From positions 1 to 34,554 of the forward strand of contig JABEUY010000040.1 of NCBI GenBank assembly GCA_013044175.1: a DNA stretch of 34,554 nucleotides. The letters run 5' to 3'. Numbering within the stretch: position 1 is the first letter of the stretch; the number at the start of each line of letters is the position of its first letter. Of the stretch, positions 1,134 to 21,591 are shown piece after piece. Origin of the DNA: Bacilli bacterium (lineage in GTDB: Bacteria > Bacillota > Bacilli > Alicyclobacillales > SLC66). The notes under the pieces are model-generated. The model was not told where the DNA came from. It worked only from the letters and a program-made list of their open reading frames with translations, and searched no databases. The position numbers and the translations under genes are program-made.

Positions 1134-1150
1134 CTTTGGAGGAATTGGTG

Positions 1151-4596: not shown

Positions 4597-7500
4597 ATGC
4601 GAATTCTTGACAATGTGAATCATACCGTCAAGGATGATTTGGCGGAAACGATCACAAAGGGTGATAAACTTTCCATCGCTGCGGCTTGTTTTTCGATTTA
4701 CGCCTATCAAGCTATCAAGAAGCAACTTGACGGAATTGATGAGCTTCGCTTTGTATTTACTTCACCCACTTTTTTGCAAGAGGAAGCGCCAAAAGAAAAG
4801 CGGGAGTTTTATATACCTAGACTTGACCGTGAGCGCTCCCTGTTCGGTACAGAGTTCGAGGTAAAGTTGCGTAACGAATTAACCCAGAAGTCGATTGCCC
4901 GTGAGTGTGCAACGTGGATTCGAAAAAAGGTGCAGTTCCGTTCGAACGTGACTGGCGGCGCGATGGGTGGATTTTTGAGTGTATCAAAGCCAGATGAAAC
5001 AATCGCATATGCACCAATCAATTCGTTTACCACATCGGATTTAGGATGTGAACGTGGCAATCACATTATGAATCTTGTCAACCGGATTGAATCCCCCCTT
5101 GCCGTTGAATACGTCAAAATGTTTGAGCAAATTTGGAATGAAAAGAATCTTTTGCAGGACGTAACCGAGCAGGTTATCGACGGCATTACAGCTGCTTACA
5201 ATGAAAACGCACCTGAGTTCATATACTTTGTGGCCATCTATAACATCTTCAATGAGTTTCTCGATGACATCAGTGAGGATGTAATGCCAAACGAAGCAAC
5301 AGGCTTTAAAGAAACGAAAATTTGGAACAAGTTATACGCCTTCCAGAAGGACGCCGCACTCGCAATCATCAACAAACTCGAAAAATATAACGGTTGTATT
5401 CTCGCAGATAGCGTTGGTTTGGGTAAAACATTCACTGCCCTCTCAGTGATCAAGTATTACGAACTTCGCAATCGCACCGTGCTAGTCCTCTGCCCGAAAA
5501 AGCTTGGCGATAACTGGCGCACGTTTAGAGAAAACTATTTGAATAACCCTATCGCCTCCGACAGAATGCGTTATGACGTGCTTTATCATACCGACCTATC
5601 ACGGGTGCATGGGTTCTCTGGTAGTGTGGATCTCTCAAAGTTCAACTGGAGTAATTACGATCTTGTCGTCATCGATGAAAGTCACAATTTTCGTAACGGC
5701 GGTGATTATTTCGGGCGCAGCGATGAAAAGCGTGAGAACCGCTATCTTCGGTTGCTGAACAAGGTGATTCGCAAAGGCGTAAAGACAAAAGTTTTGATGC
5801 TCTCGGCAACGCCTGTGAATAATGGCTTCTCCGATCTGCGGCATCAGCTTGAACTTGCTTACGAAGGGAACCCTGCCCTTATTAATGATAAGCTCGACAC
5901 AACCAAGCCGATTGACCTGATCTTTCGCAACGCTCAAACCGCTTTTAACAAGTGGAGCAAACTTGAGCCAGAGCAGCGTACAACCGAAAACCTTCTGCGT
6001 TCCCTTGACTTTGACTTCTTCACGATGCTAGACAGCGTAACAATAGCCCGCTCACGTAAACATATTGAAAAATACTATAATATCGAGGAAATAGGCAAAT
6101 TTCCAGAGCGAATGAAGCCTATTTCTTTACGCCCGAAGTTGACTGACCTACCGTCTGCGATAGACTACGACGAGATATACGGGCAACTAATGCTCTTGAA
6201 TCTCGCCATTTATGTTCCGACAGACTTTTTGCTGGAAAGCAGACGCGCGAAATACATAGACCCTAGCGTGAACATTGACCGCGCTGGAAGAGAAACCGGT
6301 ATACGACGATTGATGAGTATTAACCTTTTGAAACGACTGGAAAGCTCTGTCGCTTCATTTAGTATTACGCTTCAGCGTGTGAAAAGCCTGATAGATGGTA
6401 CAATTGCGGCTATCGAAAACTACGAAAGAGGCAACAGAAAAATCATCAACACGCGGGAACTGGTAGAAAACGACTTTGATGGCGACGACCGCAACAGCGA
6501 CTTCTTTGAAAACGACGGAAAGAAGCTCGACATCGACCTCGCCGATATGGACTATGTTTCGTGGCATAAGAAGCTCTCCGCTGATTCCGAAGTCCTCGAA
6601 CTGCTGACGCTGATGATAAAGGACATCACACCCAAACACGACACTAAGCTGCAAACACTCCTTCAGCTCATTTCTGAAAAGGCGCAGCACTCGTTCAATC
6701 CGGACAACAGAAAAATACTGCTGTTCACGGCATTCTCCGATACCGCTGACTATCTTTACAAGGGAGTGGCTCCGTTTGCAAAGGAACGGTTTGGGCTTGA
6801 CTCAGCGATGATCACTGGCACATCCGATGGCAAGACCACCGTAAAGTTGAAACGAACCGATATGAATACCATTCTGACGCTGTTTTCTCCGCTATCAAAG
6901 GATAAAGAACTGCTGATGCCGGACACAACAGAACAAATTGATATTCTCATTGCTACTGATTGTATTTCAGAGGGACAGAACCTGCAGGACTGCGACTACT
7001 GTATCAACTATGATATTCACTGGAATCCTGTCCGCATTATTCAACGGTTCGGACGAATTGATCGCATCGGAAGTAAAAACGACAAAATTCAGCTAGTGAA
7101 CTTCTGGCCGAACATTGACCTTGATAAGTACCTTGAGCTCAAGGGACGCGTGGAAACCCGCATGAAAGCTTCCGTCATGACCGCCACGGGAGATGACAAC
7201 CCGATTGATCCTGAGGAACAGGGCGATCTTGAATATCGTAAGGCACAGCTAGACAAGCTTCAAAACGAAGTGGTGGATATGGAAGACATGCAGTCTGGCG
7301 TATCGATCATGGATTTGGGATTGAATGAATTCCGGCTCGACCTGCTTGAATACGTCAAGCATCATGACAAATTAGATAGAGTCCCATTTGGACTTCACGC
7401 TGTTGTAAAAGGTGACACCGATGCGCCCCGAGGCACGATTTTTATTCTTAAAAACCGCAATGCAAACATTAACGCCAAAAATAAGAACCAACTTCATCCG

Positions 7501-7827
7501 TTTTATATGGTGTATGTACAGGAAGAATCGACCGTTTTCATCGACCACTTACAGCCGAAAAAGCTGCTCGATGAATTCCGTCAGTTGTGTCGTGGTAAGA
7601 CGGAGCCTGATCGAATGCTTTGTGATCAGTTCAATATGGAAACGAAAGACGGACGCAATATGCACCGCTATTCCGACTTGCTTTCCTTTACCGTGAAGTC
7701 CATCGTAGACCTGAACGAGAATGATTCCATAGACAGCTTCCTGTCTGGCAAGAATATATCCCTTGCTGCCAACACGATAGAGGGATTGGACGACTTCGAG
7801 TTGGTTTGTTTTGTGACGGTGAAATGA
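4597..7827 (+). CDS. SNF2/SF2-type helicase with PLD-like N-terminal region (type III system accessory)
   Basis: This protein has about 1076 residues from the ATG at 4597, which follows GAGGGG at 6 bp. The frame is open further up to a GTG at 4471. The first ~250 residues (DKLSIAAACFSIYAYQAIKKQL, LRFVFTSPTF) look like the PLD-like segment typical of this helicase group, but no clear HxK motif is seen. The ATPase follows: ADSVGLGKTF (Walker A, ~270), VVIDESHNF (DESH, ~360), LSATPVNN (~401), then TDCISEGQNLQ and QRFGRIDRIGS (motifs V-VI, ~787-824). Such proteins translocate on dsDNA or remodel DNA-protein complexes. It is the first gene of an operon with DUF4391, Mod and Res, so it probably belongs to a variant type III restriction system. 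Its precise role there is unknown. Confidence 0.85.
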   Translation: MRILDNVNHTVKDDLAETITKGDKLSIAAACFSIYAYQAIKKQLDGIDELRFVFTSPTFLQEEAPKEKREFYIPRLDRERSLFGTEFEVKLRNELTQKSIARECATWIRKKVQFRSNVTGGAMGGFLSVSKPDETIAYAPINSFTTSDLGCERGNHIMNLVNRIESPLAVEYVKMFEQIWNEKNLLQDVTEQVIDGITAAYNENAPEFIYFVAIYNIFNEFLDDISEDVMPNEATGFKETKIWNKLYAFQKDAALAIINKLEKYNGCILADSVGLGKTFTALSVIKYYELRNRTVLVLCPKKLGDNWRTFRENYLNNPIASDRMRYDVLYHTDLSRVHGFSGSVDLSKFNWSNYDLVVIDESHNFRNGGDYFGRSDEKRENRYLRLLNKVIRKGVKTKVLMLSATPVNNGFSDLRHQLELAYEGNPALINDKLDTTKPIDLIFRNAQTAFNKWSKLEPEQRTTENLLRSLDFDFFTMLDSVTIARSRKHIEKYYNIEEIGKFPERMKPISLRPKLTDLPSAIDYDEIYGQLMLLNLAIYVPTDFLLESRRAKYIDPSVNIDRAGRETGIRRLMSINLLKRLESSVASFSITLQRVKSLIDGTIAAIENYERGNRKIINTRELVENDFDGDDRNSDFFENDGKKLDIDLADMDYVSWHKKLSADSEVLELLTLMIKDITPKHDTKLQTLLQLISEKAQHSFNPDNRKILLFTAFSDTADYLYKGVAPFAKERFGLDSAMITGTSDGKTTVKLKRTDMNTILTLFSPLSKDKELLMPDTTEQIDILIATDCISEGQNLQDCDYCINYDIHWNPVRIIQRFGRIDRIGSKNDKIQLVNFWPNIDLDKYLELKGRVETRMKASVMTATGDDNPIDPEEQGDLEYRKAQLDKLQNEVVDMEDMQSGVSIMDLGLNEFRLDLLEYVKHHDKLDRVPFGLHAVVKGDTDAPRGTIFILKNRNANINAKNKNQLHPFYMVYVQEESTVFIDHLQPKKLLDEFRQLCRGKTEPDRMLCDQFNMETKDGRNMHRYSDLLSFTVKSIVDLNENDSIDSFLSGKNISLAANTIEGLDDFELVCFVTVK

Positions 7828-7836
7828 GGTGGCGAA

Positions 7837-8454
7837 ATGTTAGGGTTGCCAAGAGCGACTGAGATCAACAAGCCGCTTCCGAAAAAGTCCTTGTTTGAAA
7901 AGTTCAAGCCGAACGCCGCCGACCGGAAATTGTTTGACGATCAGATTAACAGGCTCTCAATTGTTGCAGAAATATCACCGGAGACGGTAAGCGTTGCTGC
8001 AAGCGCAGAGGTATCGACGATCTATGTGATCGCCGTGACGATGAAAACTGCCGATTGCGACAAGAAGAACATCGCACTTCTGTCTAATCTGATTGATCAG
8101 CGAATGCTATTCGTACTGCAATACGGAGATCACGCGCGACTAGCCGTTTACCGTGCAAAAAAGGTGTTTATTTCGGAGGAAAAGCCGACAGACGATTGGC
8201 AGTTGAATCTGAGCGGACTCGACCTCAGTGTGGTATGGGAACACATCATTGCTCAAATCGCCAGCATTGATCTGGCTGGGGGAAAAGACATCGACGCTAC
8301 TATTGCCGAGAACGACCGCCGCGAAAAACTGGCCAACCAAATCGCCGCGCTTGAAAAAAAAGCGCGTGCTGAAACACAACCACGCCGGAAGTGGGACTAC
8401 GCCGAGGAAATAAAGCGACTGAAGATCGAATTAGGAGGAAATACGAATGAATAA
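7837..8454 (+). CDS. DUF4391-family protein
   Basis: This 205-residue soluble protein begins MLGLPRATEINKPLPKKSLFEKF, a beginning characteristic of DUF4391 proteins found between helicase and methyltransferase genes. A mixed alpha/beta core (IYVIAVTMKT, MLFVLQYGDHARLAVYRAKKVF) is followed by a charged coiled-coil-like C-terminus (~155-200, LANQIAALEKKARAET). The ribosome binding site GAGGTGG overlaps the end of the helicase gene, and its own last 8 bp overlap the mod gene, so the products are probably translationally coupled. No catalytic motif is evident. A role as adaptor between the helicase and the Mod/Res complex is only a guess from position. Confidence 0.75.
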   Translation: MLGLPRATEINKPLPKKSLFEKFKPNAADRKLFDDQINRLSIVAEISPETVSVAASAEVSTIYVIAVTMKTADCDKKNIALLSNLIDQRMLFVLQYGDHARLAVYRAKKVFISEEKPTDDWQLNLSGLDLSVVWEHIIAQIASIDLAGGKDIDATIAENDRREKLANQIAALEKKARAETQPRRKWDYAEEIKRLKIELGGNTNE

Positions 8455-10321
8455 TATTGAGAGGCTCACTATGCACACCCCGTCCATCACGGATGAGAAT
8501 TTCACTGCTCTTGCGAAGCTTTTCCCTAACGCTGTCACCGAAACGATCGACGAGAACGGGGAGGTCGTTCGTGCCATTGACGCGGATGTGCTGGCGCAGG
8601 AGATCAACTCACACGTCGTATCCGGCAAGGAGGAGCGCTATCAGTTCACGTGGCCGGACAAGCGCAAAAGCATACTGCTTGCCAATGCGCCGATTGCTGC
8701 CACTTTGCGCCCTTGTCGAGAGGAGAGCGTAGATTTTGACAGCACAGAGAACCTTTACATAGAGGGCGACAACCTCGATGTGCTGAAACTGCTGCGCGAA
8801 ACATACCTCAATCGCGTGAAAATGATCTATATCGATCCGCCGTATAATACGGGCAACGACTTTGTATACGAAGACGATTTTTCAGAGGATGCAATCTCGT
8901 TTTTGAGTCGTGATGGGCAATATGACGAGCAGGGCAACCGCCTCACGCCGAATTTTGATAGCAACGGGCGTTTCCACACCGATTGGCTGAATATGATGTA
9001 CCCCCGTCTGCGTGTGGCAAAAGATTTGCTGACGGATGACGGGGTAATCTTTATAAGTATTGATGACAACGAAGTGGAGAATATGCGTAAGTTGTGTAAT
9101 GAAGTTTTGGGAGATACCAATTTTATAGCTCAACTCGTTTGGGAAAGGGCGTATGCGCCTAAAAACGATGCGAAATACATCTCTAACAGCCATGATTATA
9201 TCGTCATGTATGCAAAGTCGATAAATGAATTTCAAATAGGTAGACTTCCTAGAACAGAAGAAGCAAATGCGAGATACGCAAATCCAGATAATGACCCGCG
9301 TGGGGTATGGAAACCAAGCGATATGTCAGTAAAAACATATAATCCAAACTCGGATTATACAATTATAACGCCCTCCGGTCGTGAAATAGAGCCTCCAGCA
9401 GGACGCTGCTGGAGGCTCTCAAAAAATTCCTTTTTTGAGAGGCTCAAAGACAACAGAATATGGTTCGGTCATGACGGAAATAGTGTGCCCAGTATTAAAC
9501 GATTTCTCAGTGAATTAAAGTATGATGGAATGGCACCTACATCAATATTGTTCTATAAAGAAGTGGGCCACAGCCAAGAGGGTGCCAAAGAGGTTACATC
9601 ATTGATTGAGGCAGGCGCATTTGATGGACCTAAACCTATTCGGCTTCTGAGTCGCCTATTGACACTTGCAAATCTAGACGGAAATTCCATCGTACTCGAC
9701 TTCTTCTCTGGCTCCGCAACAACCGCCCACGCAGTTATGAGGCTCAATTCGGAGGACAGTGGCAAGCGCAAATTTATCATGGTACAAATTCCCGAAGTGT
9801 GCGATGAGAAGAGCGAAGCGAGCAGGGCGGGCTACAAAAACATCTGTGAAATCGGCAAAGAGCGCATTCGCCGCGCTGGACGTAAGATCAAAGACGAAGC
9901 GGGGCTGACAGCGCAAAACCTCGACATCGGCTTCCGAGTCCTGAAGCTCGACAGTTCCAACATGAAGGATGTGTACTACAAGCCGGAGGAAATAATTCAA
10001 CCTGAACTGAACCTCGATAGTCTGTCTGATAACATCAAGCCAGACCGCACTGATGAAGATTTGTTGTTTCAAACCATGCTCGACCTCGGTATTCCGCTTT
10101 CGGCAAAAATCAAGCAAGACGGCAAATTGTTCTTCGTGAACGATAACTATTTGATTGCCTTCTTCGGCAAGGTTGACACTACTCTCATTACAGAAATTGC
10201 AAAGAAGCATCCCTATTATGCCGTGTTCAGAGACGCAAGTTTCGTCAACGATAGCGCCATGGTGAACTTTGAACAGGTTTTTGCCACCTACAGCCCATCA
10301 ACGATCAGGAGGGTGCTGTAA
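8447..10321 (+). CDS. mod: Type III-type site-specific DNA methyltransferase (Mod)
   Basis: This 624-residue protein has the beta-class order of amino-methyltransferase motifs. Catalytic DPPYNTGNDFVYEDDF lies at ~130, and the AdoMet-binding DFFSGSATTAHAV at ~417. Between them lies the variable target-recognition region with the typical PPAGRCWR...FFERLKDNRIWFG block. It should transfer a methyl group to adenine N6 (most type III enzymes) on one strand of an asymmetric site, and should specify the site for Res. The start ATG overlaps the DUF4391 stop by 8 bp and has GGAGGA just upstream; an ATG at 8471 is a less likely alternative. The stop codon is immediately followed by the res ATG. Two tandem perfect hairpins (9388-9441) lie within the recognition region. 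Confidence 0.92.
   Translation: MNNIERLTMHTPSITDENFTALAKLFPNAVTETIDENGEVVRAIDADVLAQEINSHVVSGKEERYQFTWPDKRKSILLANAPIAATLRPCREESVDFDSTENLYIEGDNLDVLKLLRETYLNRVKMIYIDPPYNTGNDFVYEDDFSEDAISFLSRDGQYDEQGNRLTPNFDSNGRFHTDWLNMMYPRLRVAKDLLTDDGVIFISIDDNEVENMRKLCNEVLGDTNFIAQLVWERAYAPKNDAKYISNSHDYIVMYAKSINEFQIGRLPRTEEANARYANPDNDPRGVWKPSDMSVKTYNPNSDYTIITPSGREIEPPAGRCWRLSKNSFFERLKDNRIWFGHDGNSVPSIKRFLSELKYDGMAPTSILFYKEVGHSQEGAKEVTSLIEAGAFDGPKPIRLLSRLLTLANLDGNSIVLDFFSGSATTAHAVMRLNSEDSGKRKFIMVQIPEVCDEKSEASRAGYKNICEIGKERIRRAGRKIKDEAGLTAQNLDIGFRVLKLDSSNMKDVYYKPEEIIQPELNLDSLSDNIKPDRTDEDLLFQTMLDLGIPLSAKIKQDGKLFFVNDNYLIAFFGKVDTTLITEIAKKHPYYAVFRDASFVNDSAMVNFEQVFATYSPSTIRRVL
9388..9441. repeat. Two back-to-back perfect hairpins inside mod
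   Basis: The first hairpin has 14-bp arms (9388-9401 and 9406-9419) around a GACG tetraloop. The second has 11-bp arms (9416-9426 and 9431-9441) around TTCC, and shares its first four bases with the end of the first hairpin. The second contains an A6/T6 pair, so first stem plus T-run on either strand resembles an intrinsic terminator. The encoded residues (EPPAGRCWRLSKNSFFERL) fit the family, so the structure coexists with coding constraint. Confidence 0.75.
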
Positions 10322-13300
10322 ATGAAGTTTCAATTCAAGATACAGCCCTTTCAGACTGAAGCCGCTGAAAGCGTTGTGAAGGTGTTCGCTGGGCAGACAA
10401 AGCATGGCGAGTCGAAGTTTCGCCGCGATGTAGGCAACCTTAAAGGGGAGCTTGATGAATTTGACTCTGAATTTGATCTAGAATTCGAGACCGCTTACCG
10501 CAACGCTGACGTGGAGCTGTCAAAAGAACAGCTTCTAAAAAATATCCGCGCAGTGCAAACCGCGAACAATATTAAGTATTCGTCGGAGCTTGCCGCTGGG
10601 CTTGGCATGGTTTCCCTTGATATTGAGATGGAAACAGGGACGGGCAAAACCTATGTCTACATCAAGACGATGTTTGAGCTTTACAAAAACTATGGGTGGG
10701 GCAAGTTCATCGTGGTCGTACCGAGTGTCGCGATCCGCGAGGGCGTAAAAAAGTCGTTTGAGATAACGCAGGAACACTTCATGGAGCTATATGGCTTGAA
10801 GGCACGGTTCTTTGTATACAATTCCTCAAACCTGCACCAGTTGGATGAGTTTTCACAGAACAGCGGCATCAACGTGATGATCATGAACACGCAGGCGTTC
10901 AACACAACGATGAACGAGGAAAAGAATGTCGAGGGTAGAAGTGGCAACGAGGCGGCGAGAATTATTTACACCAAACGCGACGAGTTTGGTTCACGCCGCC
11001 CGATTGATGTCATCAAGGCAAATCGTCCGATTATCATACTGGACGAGCCGCAGAAAATGGGCGGTGCGGCGACACAGAATGCGCTGAAAAAGAATTTTTC
11101 ACCACTGTTTTCGCTGAATTATTCGGCGACGCACAAAACCTCCCATAACCTTGTTTACGTTCTTGACGCGCTGGATGCCTTTAAGAAGAAGTTAGTCAAA
11201 AAAATTGAGGTCAAAGGTTTTGAACTGAAGAATCTGAGTGGTACGAACGGCTATATGTATCTTTCGGATATTGTTCTTGACAGGAAAAAACCGCCCCGCG
11301 CCCGTCTGGAATTTGAGGTAAGCCGTGCAGGGGGCGTGCCGAAGCGCGAAACGCATCTACTTAACGTTGGCGACAGCCTTTACACGGCATCAAAGGGATT
11401 GGAGGAATACAAGGGCGTATCCCTCGCGGAAATTGACCCGGTACGGGGTCTTGTCACGTTTACGAACGGAGAAAGTTTGCGAGCCGGAGAAGCATGCGGG
11501 AATGTGAATGAGGGCGATATTCGACGCATCCAGATTCGCGAAACCATTGCTTCTCACTTTGACAAAGAGGAAAAGCTGTTCGAACAGGGCATCAAGTGCC
11601 TTTCACTATTTTTCATCGACGAGGTGGCAAAGTACCGTCAATACGGGGATGACGGCGAGGAAATCCTCGGTGAATACGGGAGCATATTCGAAGAAGAATA
11701 CACTGCTGCGCTGAACGAACGACTGACGCTTTTTCCATCGGCCTATCAAACTTATCTGCGCGGAATTGAACCCTCCGTTACACATCGCGGCTACTTTTCC
11801 ATAGACAAAAATAAACGTTACACGGATAGCCCAATCAAGCGCGGTAGTGATTTTTCGGACGATATTACCGCGTATGACCTGATCCTCAAACACAAAGAGC
11901 TTCTGCTTTCCTTTGACCAACCGACCAGGTTCCTGTTTTCCCACTCCGCTCTTCGTGAAGGCTGGGACAACCCGAATGTGTTTCAAATATGCACGCTGAA
12001 GCATTCCGACAACACCACTACAAAGCGTCAGGAAGTGGGACGCGGACTGCGCCTTTGCGTGAACAGCATGGGCGAACGACAGGATGTGGAATCTTGCGGT
12101 GAAAGTCATGTCCATGCCTTAAATACGCTGACCGTTGTTGCAAGCGAGAGCTACGCTGGATTTGTCGCGGATTTGCAGAGTGGGATTCAGTCCGACCTTT
12201 ACGAGCGTCCAACAAAGGCAAGTGTGGACTACTTTACGGGGAAAATGGTCAGTCTCGGTGATGAAACACACACCGTCACGGCTGCGGAAGCCACGGCAAT
12301 TTATAATTATTTGGCTCGTAACTTCTATGTGGACGATGACGGTGGGATTACGGACACGTATCGCAATGCCGCTGTTGCTGGTACCCTTGCGCCTTTGAAA
12401 CCTGAGCTTGAACCACTTACGGGCAGCATTCACAAGCTGATCCAGACGATCTTTGATCCGAGTATTTTGAAGGACATGGCAGGCAACGGACACGATACAA
12501 AGGTCAAAGAGAACCCGCTCAACGAAAACTGGAAGGAATTCAAGAATCTATGGGAACGAATCAACAAGAAATATGCCTATACAGTAGAATTTGACAGCGA
12601 CGAACTCATCCAAAAGTCCATCACTACGATCAATACAGATCTACGCGTTGCTTCTTTATTTTACACGACGACGACTGGCCGGCAGGAGGGCGCGGAGTTT
12701 ATTAAGGAGCATACAGAAACAAAAAAACTCGCTCGTTCTCGGGGTGGTTTTGCCGAATATGACCTTATTGGCAAGATAGCCGAGGGTACAACACTCACGC
12801 GTCGGACGGTCACGGATGTCCTCAAGGGTATCAACCGCGAAAAACTGTGGTTATTCCGTGAAAACCCGGAGGAATTCATTGCTAAGGTTTGCCGTATCAT
12901 CAATAGTCAAAAAGCTTCTGTGGTCGTTGAACATATTACCTACGCACCGAGTGCGGAAGAGCCGTATTCGCAGGATATTTTCAATATGAGCCGCGCCTCC
13001 GATGAATACGCAAAGGCATTCAGAGCGAAGCGATCTATTCAGGATTATGTCTTTACAGACGGCTCGGCGACGGATAGCATAGAGCGGCGATTTGTCGGGG
13101 ATCTGGATGTTGCCGATGAGGTCGTGGTCTACGCAAAGCTGCCGAAAGGTCCTCGCGGTTTCTACATTCCCACACCCGTTGGCAACTACTCCCCTGACTG
13201 GGCGATTTCGTTTAAAAAGGGTGCGGTGAAGCACATTTTCTTTATTGCCGAGACAAAGGGCACGATGGACAGCCTTCAACTGCGCCCGATTGAACAGGCG

Positions 13301-13408
13301 AAGATTTCATGTGCCAAGAAGCTGTTCAACGAAATCTCCACGACAGGCGTGAAGTATCACGACGTGGACAACTACCAGAGCTTGCTGACGGTGATGGAGA
13401 CGCTATAA
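10322..13408 (+). CDS. res: Type III-type restriction subunit (Res), DEAD/DEAH helicase with PD-(D/E)XK nuclease
   Basis: This protein has 1028 residues. The SF2 motor shows METGTGKTYVYIKT (Walker A, ~105), IILDEPQKMGG (DEPQ box, ~240), NYSATH (~267), then HSALREGWDNPNVFQ (~543) and RQEVGRGLRL (motif VI, ~570). The C-terminal nuclease reads YSPDWAI...IFFIAETKG (~957-980), a PD-x(n)-ExK site. Known Res proteins use ATP to switch, diffuse along DNA and cut when two unmethylated sites in inverted repeat are found. All key residues are present, so activity is expected. It starts directly after the mod stop, with AGGAGGG inside the mod end. It is the last gene of the operon. Confidence 0.92.
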   Translation: MKFQFKIQPFQTEAAESVVKVFAGQTKHGESKFRRDVGNLKGELDEFDSEFDLEFETAYRNADVELSKEQLLKNIRAVQTANNIKYSSELAAGLGMVSLDIEMETGTGKTYVYIKTMFELYKNYGWGKFIVVVPSVAIREGVKKSFEITQEHFMELYGLKARFFVYNSSNLHQLDEFSQNSGINVMIMNTQAFNTTMNEEKNVEGRSGNEAARIIYTKRDEFGSRRPIDVIKANRPIIILDEPQKMGGAATQNALKKNFSPLFSLNYSATHKTSHNLVYVLDALDAFKKKLVKKIEVKGFELKNLSGTNGYMYLSDIVLDRKKPPRARLEFEVSRAGGVPKRETHLLNVGDSLYTASKGLEEYKGVSLAEIDPVRGLVTFTNGESLRAGEACGNVNEGDIRRIQIRETIASHFDKEEKLFEQGIKCLSLFFIDEVAKYRQYGDDGEEILGEYGSIFEEEYTAALNERLTLFPSAYQTYLRGIEPSVTHRGYFSIDKNKRYTDSPIKRGSDFSDDITAYDLILKHKELLLSFDQPTRFLFSHSALREGWDNPNVFQICTLKHSDNTTTKRQEVGRGLRLCVNSMGERQDVESCGESHVHALNTLTVVASESYAGFVADLQSGIQSDLYERPTKASVDYFTGKMVSLGDETHTVTAAEATAIYNYLARNFYVDDDGGITDTYRNAAVAGTLAPLKPELEPLTGSIHKLIQTIFDPSILKDMAGNGHDTKVKENPLNENWKEFKNLWERINKKYAYTVEFDSDELIQKSITTINTDLRVASLFYTTTTGRQEGAEFIKEHTETKKLARSRGGFAEYDLIGKIAEGTTLTRRTVTDVLKGINREKLWLFRENPEEFIAKVCRIINSQKASVVVEHITYAPSAEEPYSQDIFNMSRASDEYAKAFRAKRSIQDYVFTDGSATDSIERRFVGDLDVADEVVVYAKLPKGPRGFYIPTPVGNYSPDWAISFKKGAVKHIFFIAETKGTMDSLQLRPIEQAKISCAKKLFNEISTTGVKYHDVDNYQSLLTVMETL

Positions 13409-13466: not shown

Positions 13467-13655
13467 ATGACTCAAGAGCCCTACGCCGACGGCTATAAGT
13501 GGGACATGACATTAAATCTTTACAGCGATTTTCCAGCTAGTGACGACTTAATCTATTTGATCAAACTTTCCGATATTTGTGCTATAATAGAGTCGCCTTA
13601 TGTTTTAGATATAAGGGTCGGAGATTGTTGTCAACTGATCCACCGAAATCCCTGA
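13467..13655 (+). CDS. Possible small protein downstream of res
   Basis: This 62-codon frame (MTQEPYADGYKWDM..., an acidic peptide) begins at ATG with AAAGGG about 6 bp upstream, 58 bp after res. I recognise no family. The strong promoter assigned to the reverse transcriptase leader lies inside its last third, which argues against it unless it belongs to the res transcript. It may be a genuine small accessory of the R-M operon or simply chance. Confidence 0.2.
   Translation: MTQEPYADGYKWDMTLNLYSDFPASDDLIYLIKLSDICAIIESPYVLDIRVGDCCQLIHRNP
13583..13588 (+). promoter_or_regulatory. Extended -10 promoter of the reverse transcriptase leader
   Basis: TGCTATAAT, a consensus -10 hexamer with the TGn extension, predicts a start near 13595. 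TTGATC at 13557-13562 lies 20 bp upstream, too far for a normal -35, but extended -10 promoters can work without one. The promoter lies ~200 bp ahead of the RT start codon, so the transcript begins with a long leader. Confidence 0.55.
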
Positions 13656-13785
13656 ACAGGATATCGTTTCAGTTGATGGGTGTCCAGTAAGCATGAACAG
13701 AATAATCCACAACGAGACCATGATTATTGAACTCCTCTCCTTGACTATCATAACATAGTCAACTATTAGGGCGAGACTTGGGTAG
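13595..13785 (+). ncRNA. Candidate structured leader/non-coding RNA upstream of the reverse transcriptase
   Basis: Several stems are readable directly. CCTTAT/ATAAGG (13596/13611) encloses a 9-nt loop. TCAACTGA/TCAGTTGA (13631/13669) has an inner ATCC/GGAT hairpin and can extend with G-U pairs. TTGACTAT/ATAGTCAA (13741/13755) has a 6-nt loop. GAGACT/AGTCTC (13773/13794) has the TTG start codon of the RT in its loop. Several defence-associated reverse transcriptases (DRT2, DRT9) and retrons carry a template or co-factor RNA exactly here. No terminator is obvious before the RT. The boundaries and the template role are inferred; it could also be a translation-control leader. Confidence 0.45.
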
Positions 13786-15219
13786 TTGGATTCAGTCTCA
13801 CAACAGAATGAATTCAAGTTGAGTTATACCTGTCAGCTTAGGGATGCTACCCCCCATGTTGACGGGTATTACGCTATTGTAGGGGGAGAGTTCGTGAGTC
13901 TTCAGGAGTGGAAGGTTAGAAACAAGTTCGGTAGAAACTATGCGCATTTTGATTCAAGGGTATCGCTGGATAGAGTATGGAAATACATCAGCAACCCAAG
14001 AACTGTGGCTCGTCATGGATTCTATCCTTTCATTCACTACACACTCTCGTTTCATAAATACAATAAGGCGATTGGTGAAAAAAAAGATAAAAAACGCGAG
14101 ATCTGCTACTCGGCACATCTCGATCGGTATATGTATCAGTATTATGCGTTCAAACTGAACCAATACTATAATCGCCGAGTGAACATTGACGGCCTTGATG
14201 ATGTTGCGATCGCGTATCGTGACAACTTGCACAAGAACAACATACATTTTGCGAAGCGGGCTATCGATTTTATAAAGGCCAATCCCGAGTGTCACGTGAT
14301 TATCGGTGATTTTACTGGTTTCTTTGATAACTTGGATCACGACTATTTGAAAGACACCATCTGTAATTTGCTCAATGTTGACAGGTTGCCGGACGATTAC
14401 TATGCAGTATATAAGAACATCACTCGTTACTCATGTTGGAACCTAGAAGACTTACTGCAATTTAACGGACTCCCAAACAATCCAAGGGGAGTTCAGGCAT
14501 TTAAGCAGTTAGACAGAGCTATCTCCCCCTCTGATTTTAGAATTCATAAAAAGAAGCTCGTAAAACCACACAAAGAAACGTTTGGGATTCCGCAAGGCTC
14601 AGCAATCAGTGCGGTTCTTTCAAATATTTATATGCTGGAGCTTGACAGGAAAATAAACCAACACGTTGCTGAGCGACAGGGTCTGTACATGAGATACAGC
14701 GATGACTTTATTGTAATTTTTCCAGGTTCAAACCTGGATGAGTTCAAGACTGATTTCTCGTTCATTACTTCGGTCATCAAGTCGATCCCCCGCTTAGAAT
14801 TGGAGCCAGACAAGACGCAGTTTTTTAAATACACGCACGGCGTGTTGTCTAATTGTAATGAGGAAATTCTCCCCAACGTGCAAAAAGGGAAAAACATGCT
14901 CAATTACCTCGGTTTCTCGTTTGACGGAAAAAAAGTCCGATTGAGGGACAAAACGATTTCAAAATATTACTACAGATTGTACCGTAAGCTAAAAACAATT
15001 GTTAAACGTAAAGGAGTCACCAAACATGGAAAACGAATTAGCTGCGCAAATGTTTACGAGAAGTACTCGATAAAGGGAGCCAACGAATCTGATAGGGGTA
15101 ACTTCATTAGCTATGTTCAGCGTGCTGAAAAGGTATTTGCAGGTGAAGACGCTATAGGTAACATCAGGAGAAGACATATGCGTCAAATAAGAAAACGGTT
15201 GAACCAAATCGAGAAGTAG
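13786..15219 (+). CDS. Stand-alone reverse transcriptase, candidate defence-associated (DRT/unknown-group type)
   Basis: This 477-residue protein carries the RT palm motifs: IIGDFTGFFDNLDH (motif A, ~173), GIPQGSAISAVLSNIYM (motif B, ~266), MRYSDDFIVIF (motif C, YSDD at ~304) and MLNYLGFSFDG (motif E region, ~373). A basic C-terminal ~100 residues (YYYRLYRKLKTIVKRKG) probably forms a thumb or RNA-binding part. It lacks the HNH/maturase domains of group II intron proteins. It lacks the SQ-type motif B of diversity-generating RTs and is longer than usual retron RTs. The setting next to R-M and Hhe-like genes suits an anti-phage RT. The start is taken as TTG at 13786; it has a weak ribosome binding site and lies in a hairpin loop. 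Subtype cannot be fixed by eye. Confidence 0.85.
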   Translation: MDSVSQQNEFKLSYTCQLRDATPHVDGYYAIVGGEFVSLQEWKVRNKFGRNYAHFDSRVSLDRVWKYISNPRTVARHGFYPFIHYTLSFHKYNKAIGEKKDKKREICYSAHLDRYMYQYYAFKLNQYYNRRVNIDGLDDVAIAYRDNLHKNNIHFAKRAIDFIKANPECHVIIGDFTGFFDNLDHDYLKDTICNLLNVDRLPDDYYAVYKNITRYSCWNLEDLLQFNGLPNNPRGVQAFKQLDRAISPSDFRIHKKKLVKPHKETFGIPQGSAISAVLSNIYMLELDRKINQHVAERQGLYMRYSDDFIVIFPGSNLDEFKTDFSFITSVIKSIPRLELEPDKTQFFKYTHGVLSNCNEEILPNVQKGKNMLNYLGFSFDGKKVRLRDKTISKYYYRLYRKLKTIVKRKGVTKHGKRISCANVYEKYSIKGANESDRGNFISYVQRAEKVFAGEDAIGNIRRRHMRQIRKRLNQIEK

Positions 15220-15583: not shown

Positions 15584-18500
15584 ATGGGTAGTGTTCCGAG
15601 AGAATCTCTTGAGGGTTCGTCAACCTCGCAGATGCCTTTTGCGCCAGGTAATAAAGCGAATGCAGTGTATAAGGAAAGTAATATGCGTGAAGCGGCCTTT
15701 GCTGATGCTTCCAACCCATCAACCACGCAATCTCTACGTGAAAAGTTACAGCAGGCACGAACAGACTTGTTAGATTTGACGCTCCGTAACAATATGCTTC
15801 ATTTTCGGTTGCCTAAGCGACTCGGGGTCAATCTGCATGCTCAATCGACGAGTTTAATTCTTTCGCAACTTGTCGAACAGCATGCTGCGCTGCGTTTTGA
15901 AGCTACGTTACGTGGTGAGACCGATGCCCACCAAGAGAATGTTGAACAACTCGTCATGGAGGATACGGTTGTTGACGATGACGAGGAAATGGATACGGAT
16001 CAGATCGGTCGTTCATCAGAAGTACGGCCAACGAAATCAGCCCCTATATTGTTTGCCCCTTATACGGTTGACCAATTACAAAATCGATTACTACAAACTT
16101 TTCGAACAGCAAGAACGTTAATGGAAGAACAAGGTGCCAATACGTTGTTTCTCGCGATCGGATTTCTCGAATGGTATGAAGCCAGTTCGAGTGATAAGGC
16201 GTTGATGGCGCCACTGCTATTACTTCCCGTGCAGTTGGAGCGCGATACGGTCCGTGACCAATTTACCTTGAAATACAATGATGATGAAGTGGTTGAAAAT
16301 CTCTCCTTACAATATCGTCTTACGGTAGATTTTCAAATCGCTCTTCCAACTTTGGATGGGAATGAACCGGAATCCACCATCGATCGCTTTTTTGCTGAAG
16401 TGGAAAACGCCATTGGCAAGCAAGAGCGGTGGCGGGTGCACCGGGACAAACTCATGCTCGGGTTTTTCTCGTTTGGCAAGTATCTTATGTTTCGTGATCT
16501 CGATCCCGACATCTGGCCTGAAGCGGCAAGTCCTTTGCTGCATCCTATCCTTGCTTCGCTGCTTGGGGAGGGTTTTGGCGCAGAACCTTCTTCTGTCGAT
16601 CCGGATGCGCGACTTGATGACGTGCTAATGCTTGCGGATATGCGCACGGTGCTCGATGCGGACAGTTCGCAGCTTAGGGCGATCGTCGATGTGTCACGAG
16701 GACGCAATTTGGTGATACAAGGGCCACCGGGTACGGGCAAATCGCAAACCATTACGAACATGATCGCGCGGGCGGTCATGGACGGTAAGTCGGTACTTTT
16801 TGTCGCGGAAAAAATGGCGGCGTTAGATGTGGTTAAACGTCGTTTGGAGCAGGTGGGTTTGGGCGCGGCTTGTCTTGAACTTCATAGTAACAAGACGAAC
16901 AAACGTCAGTTGCTTTTGGAACTCGACAGAACATGGCAAGTGAAAGGAACAGACGCAAACGAAGTGCGGTCAGAGGAGCAGGCGTACCTGTCTTTGCGGC
17001 AGAAGTTAAACGAATATATCGACATTATGCACCAGCCTATGGCAGCGTCTGGGGTCACACCTTATCATGCGATGGGGACGATCGTACGTTTTCATGATGT
17101 AGCGGTTGAAGAAAATTGGCCGATTTTTACCGTTCAAACAACGTGGACGCAGGAGACGTTCATTGATCATGTGGATCTACTCTCTGATCTGCAAGCTTTT
17201 CTCTCTGGCGTGGGCGTACTTCAGACGCATCCCTTTTGGGGTTGTACCATCGATGAAATTCAGGTTGGCTCTGATTTGCGACGTATAGCAACGATCCTTG
17301 AAGAATCGATCACGGCCTTGGAAGCGATGCAAAGGGAATGGGCAGACCTGTTAGGCAATTTAGAAATTTCGTATGGTGATACATGGCATGATGTGGATCG
17401 GATGTGCACTGTCTTACATCGTTTACAAACAGCGCCAGATGTCTCCGGGATCGATGTAACGGCCGAGGCTTGGCGCACGCAGGCAGACACACTGCATGAT
17501 GTCGCTAAAGCGATGCTGCAGATTGGTACTATGCGTCAAAAATATGAGGGAATCTTAGTAAGTGCTACGTGGCAGAAAGATCTATCGCGTGTTCGAACGC
17601 ATATCTTCTCGCATAAGTCGAGCTTTCTTCGTGTCTTATCGGGGGAATACAAAGCGGCACTTACCGAGGCGAAGGCATGTCTGCGCCATGCGCAAAAGCA
17701 GTCCATACAAGAGGTCCTAGCTTGGATGGATGACGTGATCGAGACCCAGGAGAAGATCAAGGAAGTGATGCGCCATGAAGAATTGTTGCAAAACGTACTG
17801 GGACAGTCGTGGCGTGGTGAAGAGACAGATTGGCTTCGCGTCACGGACGTCATCACTTGGTTAGTCCAATGGCATGCGGACGTGGCCAATGGAGAATTAC
17901 CTGATGGGGTGTTGACCACGTTATGCAGATCGGGTGTGCAAAAAGATGCCTTAGCGTGGGCGTCCGCTTTGCGACAGAAGCTCGATGTAGCCCAACATGC
18001 GGCACGCGCGGTAAAAGATGCGCTGAAGTGGAAAGAAGTAGATGCCGACGCGACAGATTGGGCACAGGCTATCGATCACGTTAAGCCGGCTTTTGGCAGG
18101 AGTATGGCTGTCGATGGTCAACGCATGCGCCAATGGCTCAGTGCAATCGATCAATTACCATCTATCATTCTCTGGAACAAGTATGTTCAAAAATGTTATT
18201 CGGTACAACTTCAGTCTGTCACGCAAGTTGCGTCGACGTGGCGACATGCCGGAACGAGTCTGGTCGATGCGTTTAGGTTTCGATGGTATGAAGCCTTGCT
18301 GCAAAAGACGTTTCAAGACCATGAAGCCTTGGCGCACTTCGCTGGCAGCACGCACGACAGCGTGATTGAGCGTTTTGGTCAACTTGATGAGGGGATGACA
18401 CGTGCGACGCAGCAACTGGCCAAAAAGGCGCATCTCGCACGTATACCCGCACGCGAAGGTGGGGGTGAGCTGAGCGTCTTGCGACGAGAAATTCAAAAGA

Positions 18501-20584
18501 AAGCTCGTCACATGCCGATTCGCAAGTTGCTGCGTGATGCAGGTCATGCGATTCAAGGTATCAAGCCGATTTTCATGGCGAGTCCTTTGTCCGTGTCGAC
18601 CTTCTTACCACCAGGAAGCTTGGCCTTTGACCTTGTTGTCTTCGATGAGGCTAGTCAGGTGCTTCCGACCGATGCCTTTGGTTCCCTGTTGCGAGGTCGT
18701 CAACTCGTGGTTGTTGGCGACAGTAAACAGCTTCCGCCGACCAATTTTTTTGACGTTACGTTGGAGGACGACGAAGAGGCGCAAGAGGCTGAGATACGAA
18801 CGAGTGACATGGAAAGCATACTCGGTCTTTGCGTCAGTCAAGGCATGCCAGAATGCATGTTACGTTGGCATTATCGAAGCCGCCATGAATCGCTCATTGC
18901 TGTTTCTAATGCGGAATTTTATGATGGACGACTCGTGGTTTTCCCAAGCGCTAACGCATCTTCGCAGGCCACCGGACTTGTCTTGCATCATAGGGAAAAC
19001 ACGGTGTATGATCGTGGCAAAACGCGTACGAATCGTCTAGAAGCGCGTGCTGTCGCCGAAGCGGTGCTTCAGCATGCTAGGTCGTATGTCGACGGCGAGT
19101 CGAAGGAAACGCTGGGCGTCGTCGCTTTTAGTAGTGCACAGGCAAGTGCTATTGAAGATGAAGTTGATCGCCTTCGCCGCAAATCTCCGGAAACAGAGGC
19201 GTTCTTTTCGGCAAGCACAGAGCATTTTTTTGTCAAGAATCTAGAAACTGTACAGGGTGATGAACGCGATGTCATCTTCATCAGTGTGGGCTACGGTCGG
19301 GATCAAAACGGTTACCTTGCGATGAGTTTCGGTCCGCTCGGTAAGTCAGGAGGCGAGCGCCGTCTCAACGTGTTGATTTCGCGTGCCCGCATGCGTTGTG
19401 AAGTTTTTACGAATCTTCGCGCCGATGATATTGATCTGCATCGTACCAAAGGCGAAGGCACGCGCATCTTCAAAACGTTTTTGAAATACTGTGAAACGGG
19501 TATCTTGGATGTGCCGCACAGTACGGAGAGGGAAATGGACTCACCGTTTGAGGTCGCCGTCCGCGACGAACTCGTTTCTCGTGGCTATCAAGTCGATGTG
19601 CAAGTTGGAACAGCAGGATTTTTTATCGATCTCGCCGTGATCGATGTCGACAAGCCAGGGCGCTACCTGCTTGGCATCGAATGTGACGGGCGGACGTATC
19701 ATAGTTCGCAAAGTGCGCGCGATCGAGATCGACTCCGTCAACGCGTGTTAGAAGGTCTCGGCTGGAGACTTCATCGGATTTGGAGCACGGATTGGTTTCA
19801 CGATAAGCGCCATTCGGTAGATCGGTTGATTCAAGCGATCGAACAAGCCAAGTTAGAAGGAAAAAATGAAAAACCCCAATCAACGAAAAATCACATAGTG
19901 ATCGCCAACGAGCAAGGAAATGGGTTGTCCGATGAGCAGCAAGCTATGGATCGTCAGGGTTCAGAAGATGTGAATGCTTTCGAAGCCAAGAAAAGTGCAG
20001 GAGAATCAGGGACTCCTCCGGTAGCAAGTAAATCTATTGCGGTACCATATGTTGTAAGTGACCTTGTGTTGCGCGTGTCGGGTGTGGAACTGCATGAAGT
20101 ACCTGTGCCTACGATGGCAAACTGGATTCGACAGGTGGTCAACGTGGAAGCGCCCGTGCACGTCGATGTGGTCGCAAGGCGTATCGCAGACGCTTGGGGT
20201 GTGAAACGCGTTGGCAATCGAATTCAGGCCACGTTTCATTCTGCGATTCACTATGCGATTCGGCAAAGTCTGGTGGAAAAAAGAGAAGGAGAATTTCTGT
20301 TTCGTCTAGGACAAACCGAAATCCCGCTGCGGTCTCGTGTCCATTTGGCCTCAGGGGAACGAAAAATGAATTGGATTGCTTCTGCGGAAATCGCCGGTGT
20401 CATCTCTGCTTTGATCGACAAGTCGTACGGTTATGCGAAAGAGGATCTCATCATCGATAGCACGCGCGAACTTGGGTTTTTACGTGCTACGCAAGAGATG
20501 CGAGACATCGTGGCGAAGATCGTGGATGAATTGTATCATGCGGGAAGTATTAAGCTTGAGGGCATCAATTATGTCAAAGGGTAA
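15584..20584 (+). CDS. Hhe-like defence helicase: DUF4011 - SF1 helicase - Vsr-like nuclease - DUF3320
   Basis: This is a giant 1666-residue protein. LREKLQQARTDLLDLTLRNNMLHF opens the DUF4011 region. IQGPPGTGKSQTITNMI is Walker A (~380). A long insertion precedes VVFDEASQVLPTDAFG (motif II, ~1020) and VVGDSKQLPPT (motif III, ~1045). TVQGDERDVIFISVGYG and ERRLNVLISRAR are motifs V-VI (~1222-1265). FFIDLAVI...LGIECDGRTYH is a Vsr/MTES_1575-type nuclease site (~1345-1370). The last ~160 residues match DUF3320. The same architecture was reported as the single-gene anti-phage system Hhe. The frame opens at ATG 15584, just after a stop; ATG 15683 has a better ribosome binding site (AAGGA). All catalytic residues look intact. 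Confidence 0.9.
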   Translation: MGSVPRESLEGSSTSQMPFAPGNKANAVYKESNMREAAFADASNPSTTQSLREKLQQARTDLLDLTLRNNMLHFRLPKRLGVNLHAQSTSLILSQLVEQHAALRFEATLRGETDAHQENVEQLVMEDTVVDDDEEMDTDQIGRSSEVRPTKSAPILFAPYTVDQLQNRLLQTFRTARTLMEEQGANTLFLAIGFLEWYEASSSDKALMAPLLLLPVQLERDTVRDQFTLKYNDDEVVENLSLQYRLTVDFQIALPTLDGNEPESTIDRFFAEVENAIGKQERWRVHRDKLMLGFFSFGKYLMFRDLDPDIWPEAASPLLHPILASLLGEGFGAEPSSVDPDARLDDVLMLADMRTVLDADSSQLRAIVDVSRGRNLVIQGPPGTGKSQTITNMIARAVMDGKSVLFVAEKMAALDVVKRRLEQVGLGAACLELHSNKTNKRQLLLELDRTWQVKGTDANEVRSEEQAYLSLRQKLNEYIDIMHQPMAASGVTPYHAMGTIVRFHDVAVEENWPIFTVQTTWTQETFIDHVDLLSDLQAFLSGVGVLQTHPFWGCTIDEIQVGSDLRRIATILEESITALEAMQREWADLLGNLEISYGDTWHDVDRMCTVLHRLQTAPDVSGIDVTAEAWRTQADTLHDVAKAMLQIGTMRQKYEGILVSATWQKDLSRVRTHIFSHKSSFLRVLSGEYKAALTEAKACLRHAQKQSIQEVLAWMDDVIETQEKIKEVMRHEELLQNVLGQSWRGEETDWLRVTDVITWLVQWHADVANGELPDGVLTTLCRSGVQKDALAWASALRQKLDVAQHAARAVKDALKWKEVDADATDWAQAIDHVKPAFGRSMAVDGQRMRQWLSAIDQLPSIILWNKYVQKCYSVQLQSVTQVASTWRHAGTSLVDAFRFRWYEALLQKTFQDHEALAHFAGSTHDSVIERFGQLDEGMTRATQQLAKKAHLARIPAREGGGELSVLRREIQKKARHMPIRKLLRDAGHAIQGIKPIFMASPLSVSTFLPPGSLAFDLVVFDEASQVLPTDAFGSLLRGRQLVVVGDSKQLPPTNFFDVTLEDDEEAQEAEIRTSDMESILGLCVSQGMPECMLRWHYRSRHESLIAVSNAEFYDGRLVVFPSANASSQATGLVLHHRENTVYDRGKTRTNRLEARAVAEAVLQHARSYVDGESKETLGVVAFSSAQASAIEDEVDRLRRKSPETEAFFSASTEHFFVKNLETVQGDERDVIFISVGYGRDQNGYLAMSFGPLGKSGGERRLNVLISRARMRCEVFTNLRADDIDLHRTKGEGTRIFKTFLKYCETGILDVPHSTEREMDSPFEVAVRDELVSRGYQVDVQVGTAGFFIDLAVIDVDKPGRYLLGIECDGRTYHSSQSARDRDRLRQRVLEGLGWRLHRIWSTDWFHDKRHSVDRLIQAIEQAKLEGKNEKPQSTKNHIVIANEQGNGLSDEQQAMDRQGSEDVNAFEAKKSAGESGTPPVASKSIAVPYVVSDLVLRVSGVELHEVPVPTMANWIRQVVNVEAPVHVDVVARRIADAWGVKRVGNRIQATFHSAIHYAIRQSLVEKREGEFLFRLGQTEIPLRSRVHLASGERKMNWIASAEIAGVISALIDKSYGYAKEDLIIDSTRELGFLRATQEMRDIVAKIVDELYHAGSIKLEGINYVKG

Positions 20585-21155: not shown

Positions 21156-21389
21156 TTATAGTTGTTTCAGTAGGTTTGTAAACTCGTCCACTGTCATTCC
21201 GGCACTTTTTAGCATGCTCCGCAGCGTGCCGGGTTTCAGGTCTTTATTTCCATGAACAGGAATGGGAAACGGATCGTGTCCCGGCTTGTGTACGATATGG
21301 TGGGAACCATGGATACGTTTTACTGTCCACCCGGCCAACAGGAACGTCTTTAATGCGTCTTTGCCGGAGACGTTGGGTAACTCCGGCAT
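21156..21389 (-). CDS. hicA: HicA-family toxin (mRNA interferase)
   Basis: This 77-residue protein reads MPELPNVSGKDALKTFLLAGW, then RIHGSHHIVHKP and PVHGNKDLKPGTLRSML, a full HicA double-stranded-RNA-binding-like fold. The conserved catalytic His of the GSH motif is present at ~30. HicA cleaves mRNAs independently of the ribosome. The start is the ATG one base after the antitoxin stop codon; a longer frame to 21440 would overlap HicB and lacks homology. It is translationally coupled to hicB. Confidence 0.9.
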   Translation of the reverse strand: MPELPNVSGKDALKTFLLAGWTVKRIHGSHHIVHKPGHDPFPIPVHGNKDLKPGTLRSMLKSAGMTVDEFTNLLKQL

Positions 21390-21390
21390 A

Positions 21391-21591
21391 TCAGACCTCC
21401 ACGTATTGCATTTTGAGGGTTTCTGGCAAACCGAGTTCACGCCGTGTTTCCACTAACCCCTCGATGGCCTCGCGGATATTCGCCAATGCTTCCTCGACTG
21501 TATCGCCTTCTGTTACGCATCCTGGAATGATCGGGCACTCCACGACATATCCGCCAGTCTCGTTCTCGCGTAGTACGACAGGATACTTCAT
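21391..21591 (-). CDS. hicB: HicB-family antitoxin
   Basis: This 66-residue protein has the partial RNase H-like HicB fold: YPVVLRENETGGYVVECPIIPGCVTEGDTVEEALANIREAI. It binds and neutralises HicA. It is the short form and lacks the C-terminal HTH or RHH DNA-binding domain present in longer HicB proteins, so autoregulation may be weak or may need another factor. Upstream on the minus strand, TGCTATACT (extended -10) lies near 21645-21653 and can serve as promoter. Confidence 0.9.
   Translation of the reverse strand: MKYPVVLRENETGGYVVECPIIPGCVTEGDTVEEALANIREAIEGLVETRRELGLPETLKMQYVEV

What the first reader, a model, noticed from the sequence alone, without database searches (positions are those of the whole stretch)
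13583..15219. Stand-alone reverse transcriptase behind a structured ~190-nt leader with its own strong promoter
Seen: an RT with intact YSDD, a TGCTATAAT promoter ~200 bp upstream, and at least four stems between them. Known: DRT2 and DRT9 use an RNA encoded just upstream of the RT as template or partner. Inferred: this is a DRT-type defence cassette, possibly with a templated product. Frames across 13595-13785 contain stops, but a concatenated or rolling-circle product could read differently, as in DRT2. The RT is not an obvious retron, DGR or group II protein.
Basis: partly seen in the sequence, partly recalled or inferred. Interest (0 to 1): 0.78.

Follow-up and report, generated by a model that had tools for sequence, protein, structure and literature searches.

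The report
DRT2 antiviral cassette with hidden gene
This is a DRT2-type bacterial antivirus system whose "leader" is an RNA template that, if copied over and over by the neighbouring reverse transcriptase, should assemble a promoter and an endless hydrophobic protein gene on the opposite strand; 47 related loci show the same hidden gene, built around a different template-jumping signal (AUU) from the studied Klebsiella system (ACA).

Summary
The RT is a DRT2 (UG2) enzyme: PADLOC Drt2 E=1.7e-145, and its model matches only the Klebsiella DRT2 structure closely (TM 0.81). Its start is probably GTG 13894, not 13786, so the "190-nt leader" is really a ~300-nt DRT2 ncRNA (13594 to ~13890) with 5' handle, template, 7-bp pseudoknot, buttress and tower, supported (template apart) by strong covariation. 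Rolling-circle copying of 13624-13764 (141 nt = 47 codons) would join a -35 (TTGACA) to a -10 (TATGAT) at exactly 17 bp, followed by an RBS, ATG and a stop-free hydrophobic Neo ORF. In 48 systems (24 template clusters) repeat length is always a multiple of 3 (126-168 nt) and the same antisense frame is open. The jump motif is AUU(G), not the published ACA, and the reading phase relative to the -35 differs from the E. coli type. So: a known kind of system, but a Bacillota variant whose neo gene I did not find described. Activity and defence are inferred, not shown.

The parts
13580..13588 (+). extended -10 (TGCTATAAT) of the ncRNA/RT operon promoter
   Evidence: sequence; TATAAT-like box at a similar distance before the template in most homologues
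13594..13890 (+). predicted DRT2 ncRNA (ends inferred: 5' end from the -10 and the Rfam match, 3' end from comparison with the 280-nt K. pneumoniae ncRNA)
   Evidence: Rfam RT-6 at 13594-13667, 48.4 bits, gathering 46.7; covariation
13596..13616 (+). 5' handle hairpin (13596-13602 with 13610-13616)
   Evidence: 98.4% of cells paired, 6 of 7 pairs with double changes
13624..13764 (+). predicted template region, 141 nt = 47 codons
   Evidence: bounded by repeated ATT; length multiple of 3 in 24/24 clusters
13624..13626 (+). jump motif 1 (AUU of AUUG), end of each round of copying
   Evidence: matches jump motif 2; AT 24/24, third base 22/24, fourth 20/24 clusters, background about 7/24
13765..13767 (+). 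jump motif 2 (AUU), where the nascent cDNA 3' end AAT would re-anneal
13629..13634 (-). -35 box TTGACA of the junction promoter (used only in the concatemer)
13747..13752 (-). -10 box TATGAT of the junction promoter; 17 bp from the -35 only across the repeat junction
13732..13740 (-). ribosome-binding site GGAGAGGAG of neo
   Evidence: CTCC/TTCC at this place in most homologues
13719..13721 (-). predicted ATG start of neo
13624..13764 (-). proto-neo: one repeat of the never-ending ORF, VDYVMIVKERSSIIMVSLWIILFMLTGHPSTETISCSGISVDQLTTI
   Evidence: same antisense frame stop-free in 24/24 clusters; codon position 2 is 45% T; GRAVY z=11.6
13741..13762 (+). hairpin holding the -10 complement, abutting jump motif 2
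   Evidence: folds in nearly all homologues
13780..13786 (+). pseudoknot strand 1, GGGTAGT
   Evidence: 99.6% of cells paired with strand 2, 5 of 7 pairs with double changes
13846..13852 (+). pseudoknot strand 2, GCTACCC, in the tower loop
13787..13816 (+). buttress hairpin (13787-13793 with 13810-13816)
   Evidence: 83.7% of cells paired, all 7 pairs with double changes; the window row is shifted by one column in the alignment
13826..13869 (+). tower hairpin (13826-13837 with 13858-13869)
   Evidence: 99.3% of cells paired, 10 of 12 pairs with double changes
13881..13888 (+). Shine-Dalgarno of the RT gene
   Evidence: sequence
13894..15219 (+). DRT2 reverse transcriptase, 441 aa, GTG start, YSDD at 14695-14706
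   Evidence: PADLOC Drt2 1.7e-145; PDB 9c0i 7.4e-62; fold TM 0.81/0.84 to 9c0i

Best explanation
A DRT2 abortive-infection system of a Bacillota subclade. The operon promoter makes a ~300-nt ncRNA followed by the RT. The RT would bind handle, pseudoknot and tower and copy the 141-nt template (13624-13764). [quoted passage not shown] Second-strand synthesis would make them double-stranded. Each junction joins TTGACA to TATGAT at 17 bp, so host polymerase would transcribe the strand antisense to the ncRNA, and ribosomes would translate a stop-less ORF (Neo) of 47-aa hydrophobic repeats that stops growth and with it the phage. Shown here: family, RNA structure, template geometry, rebuilt promoter, open frame, selection for a hydrophobic peptide. 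Inferred from the K. pneumoniae system: copying, jumping, second strand, Neo synthesis, growth arrest, phage trigger.
For: RT identity. ncRNA covariation, with the same topology as described for K. pneumoniae: handle, template, pseudoknot strand, buttress, tower with the second pseudoknot strand in its loop (PMC12039810, PMC12596737). Repeat length multiple of 3 in 24/24 clusters over 12 distinct lengths, p=3^-24, while the pseudoknot-to-pseudoknot distance of the same RNAs is 5/7/9 over the three residues. Same antisense frame open 24/24; the other antisense frames 2/24 and 0/24; any sense frame 6/24. Junction spacing of 17 bp and the jump-motif repeat give the same length independently. Self-match at offset L peaks at four positions. 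T at codon position 2 45% against 21-22% (chi-square p=1e-36); interior GRAVY +0.98 against -0.03 shuffled. Positive control: the same generic search on an E. coli DRT2 returns the published-type layout, 117 nt, ACA, 17 bp, open antisense frame.
Against: No expression, cDNA or phage data. NCBIfam Drt2 score is 389.2, just under its cut-off of 390. The published ACA motif is absent. The window's jump motif is 3 nt (AUUG then AUUA). Substitutions in close pairs show no excess at codon position 3, so the Neo sequence itself is not conserved. L061 and L038 have the RT but no layout that I could resolve. The nearest relative, L047, is truncated.
Confidence: 0.92

Rival explanations
1. The antisense frame is an ordinary small membrane-peptide gene opposite the ncRNA (type I toxin-like), read from the genome without any reverse transcription.
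For: In the linear genome the window frame runs from ATG 13721 to a stop at 13607 as a 38-aa hydrophobic ORF with an RBS.
Against: Does not predict a repeat length divisible by 3, nor the stop-free stretch between junction and start codon, nor boxes that form a promoter only when the template ends are joined; the genomic stop falls at variable places just outside the template (10-79 nt) and never inside.
Confidence: 0.04
2. DRT2 RT and ncRNA are real, but this clade makes a cDNA that acts as nucleic acid, and the ORF is a by-product.
For: Neo amino-acid sequence is not conserved; DRT9 and DRT10 act through non-coding repeat DNA (PMC12483538, PMC12632851).
Against: Divisibility by 3, one open frame in 24/24 clusters and the strong T bias at codon position 2 are coding signatures.
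Confidence: 0.03
3. A DRT9-like, retron, DGR or group II intron RT with a regulatory leader.
For: Weak shared RT-domain scores only.
Against: Drt2 profile is far ahead (483.9 against 69.8 bits for Drt9); fold match to DRT2 TM 0.81 against about 0.56 or less for all others listed; group II maturase model 69.8 bits against a cut-off of 300.
Confidence: 0.01

Closest known systems
K. pneumoniae DRT2 (UG2), Tang et al. 2024 (PMC11100668) and Wilkinson et al. 2024 (PMC12039810)
   Same: Single RT gene; upstream ncRNA with handle, template, pseudoknot, tower; junction promoter with 17-bp spacing; stop-free antisense ORF; repeat length divisible by 3; hydrophobic Neo.
   Different: Jump motif AUU(G) instead of ACA; repeats 126-168 nt instead of 111-129; -35 box read as TTG ACA (phase 0) instead of phase 1 as in the E. 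coli and Photobacterium systems; the -10 complement lies in a local hairpin against the jump site; YSDD instead of YCDD; about 33-35% RT identity to the gammaproteobacterial DRT2s compared.
Rfam RT-6 RNA (RF03027)
   Same: Handle plus start of the template of the window and of 11 of the 12 AUU-type loci scanned match it.
   Different: The Rfam model covers only 75 nt of a ~300-nt RNA and stops inside the template.
Rfam RT-12 RNA (RF03016)
   Same: Covers the 3' part of the E. coli and Photobacterium DRT2 ncRNAs, the counterpart of the window's 3' domain.
   Different: Does not match the Bacillota loci at its gathering score.
DRT9 and DRT10
   Same: Class 2 UG RT with a template ncRNA.
   Different: Products are homopolymer or short tandem repeats without a coding role (PMC12483538, PMC12632851); only a weak profile score for Drt9.

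Membership tests
DRT2 (UG2) | RT belongs to the Drt2 protein family | tested here: met
   PADLOC Drt2 E=1.7e-145 and 2.3e-95; PDB 9c0i 7.4e-62. NCBIfam NF041746 389.2 bits, 0.8 under its cut-off of 390
DRT2 (UG2) | DRT2 RT fold, no further domain | tested here: met
   AlphaFold2 pLDDT 85.3; Foldseek best 9c0i TM 0.81/0.84, all others listed about 0.56 or less
DRT2 (UG2) | Pseudoknotted ncRNA directly upstream of the RT | tested here: met
   Covariation of handle, pseudoknot, buttress, tower
DRT2 (UG2) | Template flanked by a short direct repeat that allows repeated jumping | tested here: met
   AUU at distance L in 22/24 clusters, the window included
DRT2 (UG2) | Junction-reconstituted sigma-70 promoter and stop-free antisense ORF, repeat length divisible by 3 | tested here: met
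DRT2 (UG2) | Phage-induced concatemeric dsDNA, Neo protein, defence | not testable with these tools
   needs experiments
K. pneumoniae-like DRT2 subclade | ACA jump motifs | tested here: not met
   AUU(G) instead; E. coli control shows ACA
Rfam RT-6 | Covariance-model score above gathering | tested here: met
   48.4 against 46.7 bits
Group II intron RT | Group II RT/maturase equivalog | tested here: not met
   TIGR04416 69.8 bits, cut-off 300
Retron | Retron RT model above its cut-off | tested here: not met
   Best retron model 49.1 bits, cut-off 235
DRT9 | Drt9 protein family | tested here: not met
   69.8 bits against 483.9 for Drt2

The most novel reading that the evidence does not exclude
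The Bacillota AUU-type DRT2s are a distinct mechanistic branch: the jump signal has been exchanged for AUU(G) lying against a hairpin that hides the -10 box, and the neo reading phase has shifted relative to the promoter. Neo proteins of the two branches would then share only a hydrophobic repeat character, so the effector is defined by physical properties rather than sequence.
Probability: 0.5. Interest if true: 0.7.

Novelty: new variant of a known kind. Interest (0 to 1): 0.56.

Why it matters
Tang et al. could assign ncRNAs in divergent DRT2 clades but found Neo hard to annotate there, and left open other modes of rolling-circle copying and expression (PMC11100668). For a Bacillota clade this analysis gives a specific answer: the same gene assembly with a different jump signal, testable with one junction PCR. 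It also gives a way to find hidden neo genes without knowing the jump motif (17-bp junction spacing, divisibility by 3, one open antisense frame). And it suggests that what selection keeps in Neo is a stop-free hydrophobic repeat rather than a sequence, which bears on the open question of how Neo works.

Tried and rejected
Jump motif GTC (13617-13619 and 13758-13760), the first candidate in the window, was dropped: self-match at offset L across clusters peaks at the ATTG position, not there. ACA in the window: absent at the right distance. Selection on the amino-acid sequence: no excess of third-position changes. RNAalifold on the 3' domain found the tower only; pseudoknot and buttress were named by hand and counted. 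Deeper clades: L049 (156 nt) and L053 (129 nt) gave a candidate with a multiple-of-3 length, an open frame and a TGTCAA box; L048, L051, L054-L056, L059, L082 and L084 gave none. An IMG/VR scan found no relatives. Weinberg et al. 2017 (source of the RT-6 family, from memory) is not held.

Full report
What was claimed and what is there. The RT, the promoter and the structure are real. The listed ORF begins at TTG 13786, but homologous RTs align from GTG 13894, which has a Shine-Dalgarno at 13881-13888. The leader RNA is therefore about 300 nt (13594 to about 13890), close to the 280-281 nt of the K. pneumoniae DRT2 ncRNA (PMC11100668, PMC12039810). The ends are inferred.

Family of the RT. PADLOC gives Drt2 at E=1.7e-145, the next non-Drt2 families at 1e-21 or weaker. 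NCBIfam Drt2 scores 389.2, just below its cut-off of 390; group II and retron models fall far below theirs. The best solved relative is the K. pneumoniae DRT2 RT (7.4e-62). An AlphaFold2 model (pLDDT 85.3) matches 9c0i with TM 0.81/0.84; every other PDB entry in the list is at about 0.56 or less by query length. In a 64-protein tree the window lies with Paenibacillus and other Bacillota proteins, separated with SH-aLRT 99 from the proteobacterial and cyanobacterial rows, including two E. coli DRT2s. The tree is a quick one, rooted at the midpoint.

The RNA. Rfam's RT-6 matches 13594-13667 (48.4 bits, gathering 46.7). Eleven of the twelve AUU-type loci given to the scan carry RT-6 at the same place, and the E. 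coli and Photobacterium ncRNAs carry RT-12 in their 3' part, so both Rfam families are pieces of DRT2 ncRNAs. On 36 homologues the handle stem is paired in 98.4% of cells, with 55 double-change cells against 14.7 in shuffles and at most 8 when slid. On 34 homologues the 3' domain has a 12-bp tower (99.3% paired), a 7-bp pseudoknot GGGTAGC/GCTACCC (99.6%, 5 of 7 pairs with double changes, such as GGATAGC/GCTATCC, GGGCAGC/GCTGCCC and GGATGGC/GCCATCC) and a buttress (83.7%); together 129 double-change cells against 40.2 shuffled and at most 32 slid. The pseudoknot strand just after the template pairs with the tower loop; the E. coli RNA appears to have the same arrangement by inspection (GCGGT with ACCGC in the sequence printed).

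The hidden gene. In DRT2 the effector ORF is antisense to the ncRNA and exists only in concatemeric cDNA (PMC11100668, PMC12039810). On the minus strand of the window one frame is open from 13826 to 13607. TTGACA (13634-13629) and TATGAT (13752-13747) lie in the wrong order for a promoter in the genome. Requiring the 17-bp spacing found in K. pneumoniae fixes the repeat at 141 nt, which is 47 codons. Independently, ATT at 13624-13626 recurs at 13765-13767, exactly 141 nt on. The joined sequence reads TTGACA-17 bp-TATGAT, then GGAGAGGAG and ATG, then an endless frame.

Is it more than chance? In 48 systems (window plus 47 loci) the length is always a multiple of 3. They fall into 24 clusters of templates (equal length and over 60% identity joined) with 12 distinct lengths, 126-168 nt; p=3^-24=3.5e-12 if independent. 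Selection has to be disclosed: the working table was built from candidates with length divisible by 3 and an open frame, but the unfiltered lists show no AUU-type locus whose layout fails, apart from a second, worse candidate in L024 and one at 15-bp spacing in L041. Five lengths (L028, L034, L041, L044, L050) were taken. L061 and L038 could not be resolved. The same antisense frame is open in 24/24 clusters, the other two in 2/24 and 0/24; at least one sense frame is open in 6/24; the product of the per-cluster open-frame probabilities from dinucleotide shuffles is 10^-22.8. As a control, the length between the two pseudoknot strands of the same RNAs is spread 5/7/9 over the three residues. 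Identity between position x and x+L is 24, 24, 22 and 20 of 24 at the four positions of ATTG and mostly 3-10 of 24 elsewhere, with 14 and 16 at two single positions. As a positive control the generic search (spacing, length, frame, without a given motif) on an E. coli DRT2 returned 117 nt, ACA and an open antisense frame, the published layout.

Is the frame coding? Codon position 2 is 45% T against 21-22% at positions 1 and 3 (chi-square p=1e-36), and the interior is far more hydrophobic than shuffles (GRAVY +0.98 against -0.03, combined z 11.6). Substitutions between close pairs are not concentrated in third positions, so the property is kept and the sequence is not, in line with the hydrophobic bias reported for K. 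pneumoniae Neo (PMC12039810).

What differs from the studied system. The jump motif is AUU(G), not ACA. The repeat is longer. The -35 box is in codon phase 0 rather than 1. The -10 complement sits in a local hairpin against the jump site. The active site is YSDD, not YCDD. Tang et al. said that ncRNAs could be predicted in divergent clades but that Neo was hard to annotate there and that other modes might exist (PMC11100668). In the papers held I found no description of an AUU-type neo, but supplements could not be read, so priority is uncertain.

Distribution and context. The RT is found in 1 of 18 genomes of the window's family (the window's own) and in 5 of 399 genomes sampled from its phylum, which fits horizontal spread. 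The window is a defence island: a type III restriction-modification pair (8447-13408), an SNF2-type helicase similar to PADLOC C3a139, a large Hhe/ProA-like DUF4011 protein directly downstream, and a type IV-like restriction enzyme further on.

Verdict. A DRT2 system whose mechanism can be predicted to the base. Family, RNA structure and hidden-gene layout rest on computation with controls; reverse transcription, jumping at AUU, Neo production and defence are inferred from the K. pneumoniae system.

Noticed in passing
L079:752-888, L068:1034-1146, window 13594-13667: Rfam RT-12 and RT-6, curated as separate RNA families, are the 3' part and the 5' part of DRT2 ncRNAs from two clades.
   Followed up: partly
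L047:4658-5486 (Alicyclobacillus sp. SP_1): Nearest relative (96% DNA identity over 830 bases) is a decayed copy: RT homology stops after codon 163, and the -35 complement and the handle stem are altered, while the antisense frame is still open.
   Followed up: partly
window 15584-20584: 1666-aa DUF4011/AAA/MTES_1575 protein next to the DRT2 operon, best models PDC-S37 (PADLOC) and ProA (NCBIfam, 1485.2 bits against a cut-off of 1500); Hhe-like anti-phage protein.
   Followed up: no
window 4471-13408: SNF2-type helicase (C3a139-like), DUF4391 protein, type III methyltransferase and restriction subunit in one run upstream of the DRT2 operon.
   Followed up: no
window 27599-30766: PLD-helicase-DUF3427 protein scored as a type IV methyl-directed restriction enzyme.
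   Followed up: no
window 786-1894, 2460-3008, 21156-21440: Helix-turn-helix regulator plus IrrE-like peptidase pair, a phage integrase family ORF, and a HicA toxin ORF, signs of mobile-element traffic.
   Followed up: no
L061 upstream of 5001; L038 upstream of 5001: RTs of the clade whose ncRNA layout could not be resolved by the same rules.
   Followed up: partly
L049, L053, L068, L069, L077: Other DRT2 clades give candidate layouts with other short repeats at the junction (such as TTA, AGTAT, AGAT, GTAT), which suggests that the jump motif changes often.
   Followed up: partly
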